Source of the DNA: a virus
Virus record (IMG/VR): IMGVR_UViG_3300037584_001641
Location: 1-35,847 of that record
Length of the DNA stretch: 35,847 bases
Direction: 5' to 3' (one strand)
The notes under the pieces were generated by a model that was not told the DNA's origin, searched no databases, and was given only the letters and a program-made list of their open reading frames with translations. Made by a program: the position numbers and the translations under genes. How positions within the stretch are numbered: position 1 is the first letter of the stretch; every line of letters starts with the position of its first letter. This document shows, in pieces, positions 23,883 through 35,847 of this stretch.

Positions 23883-24143
23883 ATGAATAAAAAAAAACTA
23901 CCTTATAAAAAGGTGCGAGTAATTTGGCAGGATATTTGCAGCTCAAGTCAATGGTATGATGATTTATCTGATGTTGATAAGTTTAGCTATACTTGGTGCG
24001 AAGATATTGGATACCTATATTATAAAGATTCTAAAGTAGTAAAAATATTTACTTCATTTTTTTTTGATGAGGATAAAATATCTATAGGAAATATAACTGC
24101 TTATCCTAGGTGTGTAGTTAAAAAAATAATTTACGAAAAATGA
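23883..24143 (+). CDS. Early conserved phage protein of unknown function
   Basis: An 86-residue product from ATG 23883, five bases after GGAG; a GTG two codons earlier is less likely. The order V-x-V-IWQDICSSSQWYDD, then YTWCEDIGYLYYKDSKVVKIFTSFF, then ISIGNITAYPRCVVKKI resembles a small phage family with a W-x-D...W...GWL-type pattern, of unknown role. It may be a compact beta-sheet protein. As the first gene after the divergent promoter it should be among the earliest expressed. Confidence 0.65.
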   Translation: MNKKKLPYKKVRVIWQDICSSSQWYDDLSDVDKFSYTWCEDIGYLYYKDSKVVKIFTSFFFDEDKISIGNITAYPRCVVKKIIYEK

Positions 24144-28505: not shown

Positions 28506-29162
28506 TTATCCTTTCATTTTTGCTTCAAGTTTCTTTTTTCCGTATGTTTTTACTTTTTCAACTATAATGTTGATTGTGTCTTTTTTATAGCACAACAGAC
28601 AATCTTTACATTTTTGACCTGTACAATTTTGCTCTTCTTTATGTAAATCACCCTTTACAGTATTAAAGGTTTTATCAAAATATTTTGGAATTTTACGCAA
28701 AATATGATTTGTCAATGGTGTTGAGTAAATCAAAATTAAGTTTTTTGGTTTTTCGTTTTTATCAAAAAACGGCTTTATTACATCGAACCTTTTAGACCAT
28801 AAAGAAAAAGTACAATGAGGGTTTTTGATTGCAATATTAACATAATTTTGAAGGTTAATTGTTGCTTTGGTTTTATCTAAATCTAATTCACCATGAGCAT
28901 TAAACCTAAAAAAAGCATTGTTGATAATTGGCAATGCGTCTGGATGTAAAACCTTAGAAGTCAATAAATCGGAATTACGTTGTAGAGCCGTTGCAACACT
29001 TTTTCGATATGTTCTTAACATTTCATTTGAATAACAAAAAGAACATATGTTGTTAGGGTCTTGTTTTTTATATTGTTGGTTACAATAACCATTGGTAACA
29101 GTATTTGTTGAAATAGCTTGAAAGCCTTCTAACTTTCCTGTCATTTTTGATATATGTATCAT
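28506..29162 (-). CDS. GP88-like protein with two cysteine clusters
   Basis: At 218 residues the order fits the phage GP88 family: NGYCNQQY, then NNICSFCYSNEMLRTYRKSVATALQRN (about 38-62), FRFNAHGEL (86-93), NPHCTFSLWSKR (114-125), and a Cys-rich end. Cysteines fall in two groups, Cys27/Cys40/Cys43 and Cys180-x4-Cys185-x2-Cys188-x2-Cys191, able to hold zinc or an iron-sulphur cluster. The family's activity is not established to my knowledge. It is the largest product of the leftward operon, whose promoter carries an iron-box-like palindrome (29610-29626). TAATG joins it to the gene before. Confidence 0.75.
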   Translation of the reverse strand: MIHISKMTGKLEGFQAISTNTVTNGYCNQQYKKQDPNNICSFCYSNEMLRTYRKSVATALQRNSDLLTSKVLHPDALPIINNAFFRFNAHGELDLDKTKATINLQNYVNIAIKNPHCTFSLWSKRFDVIKPFFDKNEKPKNLILIYSTPLTNHILRKIPKYFDKTFNTVKGDLHKEEQNCTGQKCKDCLLCYKKDTINIIVEKVKTYGKKKLEAKMKG

Positions 29163-29314
29163 TATTGATTATCCCTTTTTTTTTGTTCTTTTTGGTATTC
29201 ATCACAGATTTTCTTATATTCATCTGTTTTTTTATAATCATCTATTTGTTTATTAAGATGATTTATAAAAGTCTGTAAACTTTTTAAATAATTATCATTT
29301 ATTATTTTATTCAT
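29162..29314 (-). CDS. Small helical protein, 50 residues
   Basis: ATG 29314 shares bases with the previous TAA, and the stop at 29164-29162 shares bases with the GP88-like start (both TAATG). The product is one polar helix rich in Lys, Asp, Asn and Tyr, with one Cys at residue 37. AAGGG at its end is the GP88-like gene's ribosome site. Function unknown. Confidence 0.55.
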   Translation of the reverse strand: MNKIINDNYLKSLQTFINHLNKQIDDYKKTDEYKKICDEYQKEQKKRDNQ

Positions 29315-29499
29315 TAATTAACCCCTTTCTCATTTTTTGCTTTTTGAACCATATCAACTAATTTTCCTAATGTTGCGACCTGGTTTTGCATTTCTTTTTT
29401 GCCTTCATCATTTAATTTAGAATATAAATCTAAATATAAAGGCAATTGATTTTCCCATGTATTATTTAATTTGATTTCTAGTTTTTGTTTTTTTGTCAT
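29314..29499 (-). CDS. First gene of the leftward accessory operon, 61 residues
   Basis: I choose ATG 29499, seven bases after AAAGG; an in-frame ATG five codons earlier (29514) lacks a ribosome site. The product is helical and amphipathic (NTWENQLPLYLDLYSKLNDEG, then QNQVATLGKLVDMVQKAKNE) and may oligomerise. It lies about 100 bases below the promoter at 29608-29636, so it should be the first product of the operon. No family recognised. Confidence 0.6.
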   Translation of the reverse strand: MTKKQKLEIKLNNTWENQLPLYLDLYSKLNDEGKKEMQNQVATLGKLVDMVQKAKNEKGVN

Positions 29500-29562
29500 T
29501 TTTTTACCTTTCATTTTTTTATAAATTTTTATTTATATTTTTTTTGTTTTGTAGTTGACAGA

Positions 29563-29590
29563 TTGACGCAGTTATAATTGTGGCTAAAAT
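29563..29590 (+). promoter_or_regulatory. Possible rightward promoter toward the late block
   Basis: TTGACG (29563-29568), 16 bases, TAAAAT (29585-29590). The first gene in that direction starts only at 30020, leaving a long leader. A perfect TTGACA sits eight bases upstream at 29555 but is not well spaced from a -10. Tentative. Confidence 0.35.
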
Positions 29591-29607: not shown

Positions 29608-29636
29608 ACTTTAGAATTGTTCTAAATACCGGTCAA
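29608..29636 (-). promoter_or_regulatory. Leftward promoter of the accessory operon
   Basis: On the - strand TTGACC (29636-29631), a 17-base spacer and TAAAGT (29613-29608). Transcription would begin near 29601 and give a leader of about 100 bases to ATG 29499. The palindrome at 29610-29626 covers most of the -10 and spacer, so a bound protein would exclude RNA polymerase. Confidence 0.6.
29610..29626. promoter_or_regulatory. Perfect 17-bp palindromic operator (Irr/ICE-like box)
   Basis: TTTAGAA-TTG-TTCTAAA is a perfect inverted repeat with a three-base centre. It is the form of a dimer-binding operator and lies on a promoter. From memory, the iron control element bound by the Fur-family regulator Irr in alphaproteobacteria is TTTAGAA-N3-TTCTAAA, an exact match. 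The phage shows no repressor gene, so a host regulator would be the reader. Confidence 0.6.
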
Positions 29637-29662
29637 CCTGGGGTTGTGTTAAATTATTTTTA

Positions 29663-29712
29663 ATGGTCCAGGAATTTATTTTTTATGGTCCAGGAATTAG
29701 AATTGGAATTAG
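29663..29712. repeat. Iteron-like short direct repeats
   Basis: ATGGTCCAGGAATT occurs at 29663-29676 and 29685-29698, exactly 22 bases (two helical turns) apart. GGAATTAG then recurs at 29693-29700 and 29705-29712. Repeats facing the same side of the helix suit cooperative binding by an initiator or small terminase. Confidence 0.55.
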
Positions 29713-29870
29713 TTAAAAGAAGCTATTCAAATTTAAACAAACAAATTTTTTTCTTATGCGTCATCACTAACGGCTTTGAAAATTTAAAATATAAAGAAAT
29801 TTTTACTAACGATAATAAAAGATTATTATTAATGATAATATTTTTTGTCTTTTTGCGTGTAAAATTAAAG

Positions 29871-30019: not shown

Positions 30020-30211
30020 ATGGCTTATTTAGACACAGATGATTTTGATTGTATTGCTTATATTGACGAAAAAACCAATGCAGTAACAGTTAAATTCGTT
30101 GGTATACCTAACAAACAATCTGCAGAATTATTTATAAATTATGTAATGGTTACCCTAGGAGTAGACTTTAGACCATTAGATCAAACTGATAGATCAAAAA
30201 TGATACACTAA
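30020..30211 (+). CDS. Small protein upstream of the large terminase
   Basis: At 63 residues it reads DTDDFDCIAYIDEKTNAVTVKFVGI (about 5-29) and then a short helix, giving a beta-beta-alpha look. Its ATG at 30020 has no recognisable ribosome site, only a long pyrimidine run about 20 bases earlier, so initiation may be leaderless or weak. TAATG couples it to terL. Common small neighbour type of marine phage terminases; function unknown. Confidence 0.6.
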   Translation: MAYLDTDDFDCIAYIDEKTNAVTVKFVGIPNKQSAELFINYVMVTLGVDFRPLDQTDRSKMIH

Positions 30212-31482
30212 TGAATATCAAAATACCTTATACACCAAGGAAACATCAAGCATTCTTACATAAACAAATAAACAAACACAGATGGAGTGTGCTAGTTTGT
30301 CACAGAAGGTTCGGTAAAACAGTATGCATGATCAACCACCTAATAAAATCTGCCTTAATGTGTCCACACAAAAACCCAAGATTTGCTTATATTGCTCCTA
30401 CATTCAAGCAAGCTAAAAGCATTGCTTGGGATTATATAAAACAATTTACTGATAAAATCCCATTAACAAAGTTCAATGAAACAGAGTTAAGAGTAGATCT
30501 ACCTAATGGTGCTAGAATAACATTACTCGGAGCAGAAAACTCAGATGGTCTTAGAGGTATCTACTTGGATGGCTGCGTTATTGATGAGTACGCAAATGTT
30601 GAAGGAAAGTTGTTCGCAGAAATAATTAGACCAGCTCTAAGTGATAGGAAGGGGTATTGCGTATTCATAGGAACACCTGCTGGAATGAACAATAACTTTT
30701 ATGATTTATATCAGCACGCACAAAGTGCAGAAGATTGGTTTAACTACAAAGCAAAAGCTAGCGAGACAAAAATAGTCGACCAGGAAGAATTAGACAAAGC
30801 AAAAGAAGTTATGGGTGAAAAGAAATATATGCAAGAGTTTGAGTGTGATTGGGTAGCAAACATTGAGGGTGCAATCTATGGAGAAGAAATATCTAAACTA
30901 GATGACAAAAAACAATTAGCTAGAGTTCCTTATGATCCTACCTTGCCTGTCTCTACTGCCTGGGATTTGGGGGTTGCCGACCACAGTAGTATTATTTTTT
31001 TTCAACAAAAAGGTACAGCAATACAAATAATAGACTACCACGAAGAAAGGGGTCATGGGTTACCACACTATATTCAAATGCTAAACGAAAAACCATACGT
31101 CTACAAAGATCACTTTGCTCCACACGACATTGATGTACAGGAGTTTGGCAATGGTAAAACCAGAAGAGAGATAGCTTATCAGCTAGGAGTTAGATTTAGA
31201 GTAGTACCGAAGCTACCAGTAGAAGAAGGTATTCACGCAGTAACAATGTTGTTGCCAAGATGTTGGATTGATACAGATCATTGCAAAAACTTAATAGATG
31301 CGTTAAGACATTACCACAGGAAGTACATTGACAAAAATAGAATGTTCAGATCGAAACCTGTACATGATTGGAGCAGCCATGCGTGTGATAGCATGAGGTA
31401 TCTCGCTGTTGGCTTGCAAGAATTAAATACTAGACAAATTGCTCCACAAAGTGTAGCAGATAATAGTTATAGGATTATTTAA
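30211..31482 (+). CDS. terL: Terminase large subunit
   Basis: At 423 residues the ATPase half shows Walker A as CHRRFGKT (30-37, a known terminase variant), Walker B as CVIDEY (122-127) and the coupling motif GTPAG (154-158). The nuclease half has Asp252 in STAWDLGVADH, Asp306 in APHD, and Asp393 in SSHACDSMRY, an RNase H-like triad. It pumps DNA into the procapsid and cuts it. The length is that of short terminase families and is below T7 gp19 (586). It opens the late block, and TerS is unusually distant at 25583. Confidence 0.95.
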   Translation: MNIKIPYTPRKHQAFLHKQINKHRWSVLVCHRRFGKTVCMINHLIKSALMCPHKNPRFAYIAPTFKQAKSIAWDYIKQFTDKIPLTKFNETELRVDLPNGARITLLGAENSDGLRGIYLDGCVIDEYANVEGKLFAEIIRPALSDRKGYCVFIGTPAGMNNNFYDLYQHAQSAEDWFNYKAKASETKIVDQEELDKAKEVMGEKKYMQEFECDWVANIEGAIYGEEISKLDDKKQLARVPYDPTLPVSTAWDLGVADHSSIIFFQQKGTAIQIIDYHEERGHGLPHYIQMLNEKPYVYKDHFAPHDIDVQEFGNGKTRREIAYQLGVRFRVVPKLPVEEGIHAVTMLLPRCWIDTDHCKNLIDALRHYHRKYIDKNRMFRSKPVHDWSSHACDSMRYLAVGLQELNTRQIAPQSVADNSYRII

Positions 31483-35547: not shown

Positions 35548-35847
35548 ATGTCAACTGAAATAACAAAAGCATTTGTAGAACAATACAGTTCAAACATACA
35601 AATGTTATCACAACAAAAAGGATCACTTTTAAGAGATAAAGTGAGACTTGAGTCTGTTACAGGGAAGAATGCTTTCTTCGACCAAATTGGTTCTGTAACT
35701 GCAACAGTTCGTTCAACTAGACACTCGAACACTCCACAAGCAGATACTCCTCACTCAAGAAGAAGAGTTAGCTTGGTTGACTATGAGTTCGCAGATTTAG
35801 TTGACGATCTAGATAAAGTAAGAATGTTGGTAGATCCTACTTCTAGC
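35548..35847 (+). CDS. Major capsid protein, 3'-truncated at the contig end
   Basis: This is the true N-terminus of the head shell protein. ATG 35548 follows AAGGAG (35535-35540) at a seven-base distance, the best ribosome site in the window, as expected for the most abundant virion protein. The first ten residues (STEITKAFV and on) are missing from the left copy. From residue 11 it matches the left copy, base-identical for 127 bases and then only protein-identical. The reading frame continues off the end. Read together with the left copy the gene is intact. Confidence 0.85.
   Translation, partial: MSTEITKAFVEQYSSNIQMLSQQKGSLLRDKVRLESVTGKNAFFDQIGSVTATVRSTRHSNTPQADTPHSRRRVSLVDYEFADLVDDLDKVRMLVDPTSS
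35579..35847 (+). repeat. Contig-end repeat, right copy (matches 1-269)
   Basis: Exact match to bases 1-127 over 35579-35705, then 15 substitutions to the end. All are synonymous and the alignment has no gaps. Trimming one copy leaves about 35,578 unique bases. Either the molecule closes on itself here, or there are two tandem capsid genes. Confidence 0.9.

What the first reader, a model, noticed from the sequence alone, without database searches (positions are those of the whole stretch)
29610..29626. Perfect iron-box-like (Irr/ICE) palindrome sitting on a phage promoter
TTTAGAA-TTG-TTCTAAA is a flawless inverted repeat covering the -10 and spacer of the leftward accessory promoter. It equals, as I recall it, the alphaproteobacterial Irr iron control element. 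The operon below encodes a GP88-like protein with two cysteine clusters that might hold Fe-S or zinc. A phage that lets a host iron regulator decide when accessory genes are expressed, in an iron-poor ocean, would be new. Even without the Irr link, it is an operator in a genome with no visible repressor.
Basis: partly seen in the sequence, partly recalled or inferred. Interest (0 to 1): 0.8.

Follow-up and report, generated by a model that had tools for sequence, protein, structure and literature searches.

The report
Host iron-regulator (Irr) operator in pelagiphages
Phages of the ocean's commonest bacteria (SAR11) carry, in the control region before their DNA-packaging genes, a close copy of the DNA switch their hosts place before the gene for their iron regulator Irr, which suggests that the host's iron/haem sensor helps time phage gene expression; this is untested at the bench.

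Summary
The palindrome is real: TTTAGAA-TTG-TTCTAAA, window 29610-29626. As a palindrome it is unremarkable (7 perfect 7-3-7 palindromes in the window, 5.4 expected). As a sequence it is not. In 12 SAR11 genomes, boxes of this kind sit before irr and before the neighbouring peroxide-defence gene; a strict pattern hits about twice per genome, mostly there. A matrix built only from those host boxes scores the window site 22.3 bits (host maximum 22.0), next best in the genome 11.5; 0 of 400 simulated genomes reach it.

48 of 75 related pelagiphage loci carry the box upstream of the large terminase; 0 of 88 control regions do. It is the best-conserved block there (1.49 bits per column; flanks 0.4). 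A distant pelagiphage type (HTVC106P) has it directly before the small-terminase start codon.

Best reading: an operator for host Irr, present in at least two phage lineages. Binding, direction of control and iron dependence are inferred. Not supported: a specific link to GP88, a conserved leftward promoter, and that this would be the first phage under a host nutrient regulator (cyanophage Pho boxes; corynephage tox/DtxR). Some relatives carry a Fur-like box instead of, or beside, the Irr box.

The parts
29610..29626 (.). 17-bp operator TTTAGAATTGTTCTAAA, predicted binding site of host Irr
   Evidence: 22.3 bits by a host-derived matrix; conserved upstream of TerL in 48 of 75 relatives
29608..29636 (-). 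possible leftward promoter: -35 TTGACC (29636-29631), 17-bp spacer, -10 TAAAGT (29613-29608); the operator lies in spacer and -10
   Evidence: 9 of 12, not significant by itself; TTGAC stands 4 nt from the box here and 4-6 nt from it in 8 of 12 host promoters of the gene next to irr; not conserved in phage relatives
29553..29590 (+). TTGACAgATTGACGCA element and possible rightward promoter (TTGACG at 29563, 16 nt, TAAAAT ending 29590); a TTGACGCA/TGTCGCA block stands left of the box in most relatives
   Evidence: function unknown
28506..29514 (-). start of the leftward operon: small ORFs 29314-29514 and 29162-29314, then GP88-family protein 28506-29162
   Evidence: Pfam GP88; 7 invariant cysteines in 22 homologues
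30020..31482 (+). start of the rightward packaging/structural operon: 63-aa ORF 30020-30211, then terminase large subunit 30211-31482

Best explanation
The palindrome is an operator for the host's Irr protein, the haem/iron-responsive Fur-family regulator of alphaproteobacteria. Shown by sequence: host irr and its neighbouring peroxide-defence gene carry the same 17-bp box, the phage site matches it as well as the host's own sites do, and the box is kept in the terminase-upstream control region of many HTVC010P-type pelagiphages and at the small-terminase start in HTVC106P-type phages. Inferred: Irr binds there as a dimer on phage entry, covers the overlapping promoter(s) and holds down the leftward and/or rightward operon; the block lifts when Irr is inactivated by haem/iron or when replicating phage genomes titrate it out. 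The phage thus borrows a repressor it does not encode, and its timing becomes tied to host iron status and to phage copy number.
For: SAR11 genomes have two or three Fur-family proteins; one is Irr-like (NCBIfam IrrA 131 bits; next-best non-Irr family 63). All 12 genomes carry such boxes before irr and in the gap before the next gene, which is rubrerythrin in 6 and a haem peroxidase (KatG-like) in at least 4; the Fur and Zur loci do not carry it. In 10 genomes a strict pattern has 21 hits, 18 at this locus. Host-derived matrix: the best site of the whole genome in the window, HTVC035P, 203P, 204P, 100P, 010P, Lederberg, Skadi-4 and HTVC106P. 48/75 relatives against 0/88 control regions; 1.49 against 0.4 bits per column in 36 non-redundant loci; 16/39 HTVC106P-type terS loci with the box just before the start codon; no site of 14 bits or more in 592 kb of other SAR11 DNA. 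Literature: Ca. Pelagibacter encodes Fur and Irr (PMC2864753); Irr binds the ICEs of a rubrerythrin-like gene in Bradyrhizobium and the promoters of mbfA and the peroxidase gene ccpA in Rhodobacter (PMC3413700); an ICE overlapping -35/-10 is derepressed when TTCTAA is mutated (PMC7540006).
Against: No binding or expression data exist for this site. SAR11 Irr falls below NCBIfam's equivalog cut-offs (131 against 150; 121 against 170). rbr rose 1.57-fold under iron limitation in P. ubique (PMC2864753), opposite to simple low-iron repression by Irr, so polarity is uncertain. The promoter hexamers around the phage box are not conserved. Several close relatives lack the box. In a cyanophage, Pho boxes predicted by sequence were judged unreliable without binding tests (PMC10976474). 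HTVC027P raises host irr during infection (PMC12753301) without carrying a box, so irr induction is no sign of titration.
Confidence: 0.75

Rival explanations
1. Decoy: the box mainly titrates Irr away from the host irr and rubrerythrin/peroxidase promoters, raising peroxide and iron handling during infection, with little effect on phage transcription.
For: Those promoters hold most strict host boxes, so a multicopy phage box could draw Irr off them; the box is conserved while the promoter context around it is not.
Against: The box is placed in control regions: directly before terS in HTVC106P-type phages and about 34 bp before the first rightward ORF in a subset (-225 sites). A decoy needs no such place.
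Confidence: 0.12
2. The box is the site of another SAR11 regulator that happens to control irr and its neighbour, not of Irr itself.
For: Binding was inferred from gene neighbourhood, not measured; SAR11 Irr is below the curated Irr cut-offs.
Against: Autoregulatory position, the TTCTAA half-site of the rhizobial ICE (PMC7540006), and rubrerythrin-like and peroxidase genes as Irr targets in other alphaproteobacteria (PMC3413700) all point to Irr; Fur and Zur loci lack the box.
Confidence: 0.07
3. Site of a phage-encoded DNA-binding protein (O-like initiator, DnaA-C protein, small terminase), for instance an origin or packaging element.
For: The region lies upstream of the terminase and the phage encodes such proteins.
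Against: The same box stands at host irr promoters and in a second phage type with a different gene set; relatives annotated with the same protein types lack the box.
Confidence: 0.05
4. Chance AT-rich palindrome without function.
For: About 5 perfect 7-3-7 palindromes are expected per genome of this kind.
Against: Match to the host box (0/400 simulated genomes), position and column conservation.
Confidence: 0.01

Closest known systems
Irr / iron control element (ICE) of rhizobia and other alphaproteobacteria
   Same: 17-bp dyad with TTAGAA...TTCTAA half-sites; found here at host irr and at the neighbouring rubrerythrin or peroxidase gene; Irr present in the host
   Different: Here in lytic-type phages; the SAR11 form often has one A/T-rich half (TTATAA); its polarity with iron in SAR11 is unsettled
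Host PhoB control of cyanophage genes through Pho boxes (S-PM2d, P-SSM2; PMC10976474)
   Same: Marine phage genes under a host nutrient regulator
   Different: Phosphate and a two-component activator there, with binding shown; iron/haem and a Fur-family regulator here, no binding shown yet
Corynephage tox under host DtxR; stx1 of a lambdoid phage under host Fur (own knowledge)
   Same: Phage-borne genes controlled by a host iron regulator
   Different: Temperate phages and single cargo genes there; terminase-upstream control region of pelagiphages here

Membership tests
Irr operator (ICE / Irr-box) | Sequence matches the Irr-box of the host clade | tested here: met
   22.3 bits against host sites of 13.7-22.0
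Irr operator (ICE / Irr-box) | Host encodes Irr | tested here: met
   Irr-like Fur-family gene in all 12 SAR11 genomes searched (family check on one, below the equivalog cut-off); PMC2864753 states that P. ubique has Irr. The host of the window phage itself is inferred from its relatives' hosts
Irr operator (ICE / Irr-box) | Lies at a promoter or transcription start | tested here: inconclusive
   Weak leftward hexamers in the window, not conserved; clear start-codon-proximal position in HTVC106P-type phages
Irr operator (ICE / Irr-box) | Irr binds it | not testable with these tools
   needs a gel shift or DAP-seq
Irr operator (ICE / Irr-box) | Downstream expression responds to iron/haem through Irr | not testable with these tools
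   needs reporter assays or infection transcriptomes at two iron levels
Fur box | TGATAATnATTATCA-type 7-1-7 core as found before the host iron-binding protein gene | tested here: not met
   window site matches 13 of 16 positions; five relatives do carry a 15-16 of 16 match elsewhere in the region

The most novel reading that the evidence does not exclude
SAR11 phages of at least two distant types use the host haem/iron regulator Irr as a borrowed repressor of the packaging (terminase) control region, released by titration as phage genomes multiply or by haem/iron, with a Fur box standing in for it in some relatives: an iron- and copy-number-gated lytic programme.
Probability: 0.35. Interest if true: 0.9.

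Novelty: new variant of a known kind. Interest (0 to 1): 0.75.

Why it matters
Pelagiphages are highly abundant in the sea, and little is known of how HTVC010P-type phages, in which no repressor was found here, time their transcription. A host iron regulator acting on them would link ocean iron status to viral lysis of SAR11, and the prediction is a single 17-bp site that an ordinary gel shift can test. The same work yields a predicted Irr box and Fur box for SAR11 itself.

Tried and rejected
GP88 as the reason for the box: rejected, since distant GP88 genes mostly lack the box; GP88 has 7 invariant cysteines, but its model (pLDDT 79) finds no solved fold at E <= 0.001. The strict ICE pattern with two G/C half-sites in host genomes: no excess over the control; the host form usually has one TTATAA half, found only after looking at the irr promoter itself. 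Paper searches for the printed ICE sequence and for the Rudolph 2006 and Rodionov 2006 papers: not held. A shared conserved promoter for all phage boxes: none found. LexA as the regulator: not tested directly; the three strict host hits away from irr lie beside other genes.

Full report
Observation. TTTAGAATTGTTCTAAA lies at 29610-29626 with perfect arms. Perfect 7-3-7 palindromes alone are not unusual in this AT-rich genome: 7 found, 5.4 expected. The window is an HTVC010P-type pelagiphage, TerL 95% identical to HTVC024P and about 82-93% to other named isolates. The site lies in the 505-bp gap between a leftward operon of small genes (starting at 29514) and the rightward operon that begins with a 63-aa ORF and the large terminase.

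What the host does with such a sequence. SAR11 genomes were reached through a 16S probe. Each of 12 has two or three Fur-family genes. In the loci checked, the best match per genome is Fur-like, the second Irr-like (131 bits to NCBIfam IrrA, below that model's cut-off of 150; the next-best non-Irr family scores 63) and the third Zur-like. Boxes with consensus TTTAGAATnATTATAAA stand directly before irr and in the gap before the next gene in all 12; no comparably good site lies in the Fur or Zur loci. The next gene is rubrerythrin in six genomes and a haem peroxidase, KatG-like by inspection, in at least four; in the remaining two (L231, L236) it runs off the stretch read. In 10 genomes the pattern TTAGAAYNRTTMTAA has 21 hits, 18 of them at the irr locus; the other three lie beside unrelated genes. 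This is the expected target set of an autoregulated Irr: in Bradyrhizobium a rubrerythrin-like gene is an Irr target, in Rhodobacter Irr binds mbfA and the peroxidase gene ccpA (PMC3413700), P. ubique is reported to encode Irr and Fur (PMC2864753), and the rhizobial ICE contains the same TTCTAA half-site and can overlap -35/-10 (PMC7540006).

Test on phages. A matrix made only from the best host box of each of the 24 host promoters ranks the window palindrome first in the whole genome, 22.3 bits, second best 11.5; 0 of 400 Markov genomes reach 22.2 bits, and sites of 14 bits or more are expected 0.1 times per genome. The same holds for HTVC035P (identical box), HTVC203P, HTVC204P, HTVC100P, HTVC010P, Lederberg (two boxes) and Skadi-4; HTVC024P, Greip, HTVC034P and HTVC028P lack a strong site at this place. 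Of 75 loci with at least 700 bp upstream of TerL, 48 have a site of 14 bits or more; of 88 equal-sized regions downstream of TerL, none. The loci are related, so these are not 48 independent events; but in 36 non-redundant loci the box columns hold 1.49 bits on average and the flanks 0.41 and 0.38, so the box is kept while its surroundings diverge. A subset has a second box at -225, about 34 bp before the 63-aa ORF. Background: no site in 592 kb of SAR11 DNA around 16S genes, 6 in 695 kb of unrelated viral DNA.

A second phage type. HTVC106P (TerL 50% identical) has its best site, 21.8 bits, as TTTAGAATTATTATAAA followed by AAACAATG, the start of gp68, a Sf6-type small terminase by Pfam. A host irr start reads TTTAGAACTATTATAAAAAACAATG, one difference in 25 bases. 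Of 39 IMG/VR relatives of this gene, 16 carry the box within about 13 bp of the start codon, and some of the others carry one about 120 bp after the gene. HTVC027P and the part of HTVC103P searched have no site of 14 bits.

Fur boxes. A different dyad, TGA[GT]AATnATT[AC]TCA, stands before a periplasmic solute-binding protein gene in five SAR11 genomes (Pfam on one of them; taken to be the iron-binding SfuC by its place and sequence) and before haem-synthesis-like genes in three (named by inspection). Five phage loci, among them HTVC024P and Greip that lack the Irr box, have a 15-16 of 16 match 354-445 bp upstream of TerL; 0 of 90 control regions do. A small sample, but it points the same way.

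Mechanism. Shown: host and phage share the operator sequence, and it is conserved in position. Inferred: Irr binds it; binding represses. In the window the arrangement TTGACC, 4 nt, box resembles 8 of 12 host promoters of the gene next to irr (TTGAC 4-6 nt from the box), but that hexamer is not kept in other phages, so which of the two divergent operons is controlled is open; in HTVC106P-type phages the position implies the terminase side. Release could come from haem/iron acting on Irr or from titration by phage copies. Against a simple picture: rubrerythrin transcripts rose 1.57-fold in iron-limited P. ubique (PMC2864753), and irr is induced by HTVC027P, which has no box (PMC12753301).

Novelty. 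Phage genes under host nutrient regulators are known (PhoB in cyanophages, PMC10976474; DtxR and Fur on temperate phages, own knowledge). A search for phage, iron, Irr and SAR11 together returned two papers, and the passages read there do not deal with operators in phage DNA. So this is a new variant of a known kind: a Fur-family iron regulator, pelagiphages, and the packaging control region. Most subscription journals are not in the library searched, so an earlier report cannot be excluded.

Noticed in passing
L001, L003, L016, L032, L058, 354-445 bp upstream of TerL: Fur-box-like dyad TTGAGAATnATTMTCAW, the same core as before SAR11 iron-binding-protein genes; present in HTVC024P and Greip, which lack the Irr box.
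   Followed up: partly
window 29553-29570, and left of the box in most relatives: A TTGACAnATTGACGCA / TGTCGCA element 5-14 nt left of the box in most relatives (further left in the window), spacing variable; may be a second operator or part of a promoter.
   Followed up: no
window 28506-29162: GP88-family protein with 7 invariant cysteines (C27, C40, C43, C180, C185, C188, C191) in 22 homologues, likely a metal site; no solved fold matches.
   Followed up: partly
L227, L232, L233, L234: In these SAR11 genomes the box-bearing gene after irr is a haem peroxidase (KatG-like) in place of rubrerythrin: a swap of peroxide-defence enzymes under one operator.
   Followed up: partly
window 24019-24035 and similar sites in HTVC010P, HTVC024P, HTVC035P, HTVC100P, Greip: A weaker site ATTATAAAGATTCTAAA (11.5 bits) recurring across genomes, in or near a coding region; perhaps only codon conservation.
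   Followed up: no
window 29660-29720: Direct repeats TTTTTAATGGTCCAGGAATT / TTTTTTATGGTCCAGGAATT right of the box; similar GGTCCAGGAATT repeats in L019 and L032.
   Followed up: no
window 35548-35847 and 1-300: The end of the window repeats its start (major capsid gene), with a few differences in reading, so the record is probably a circularly permuted or terminally redundant genome although classed as linear.
   Followed up: no
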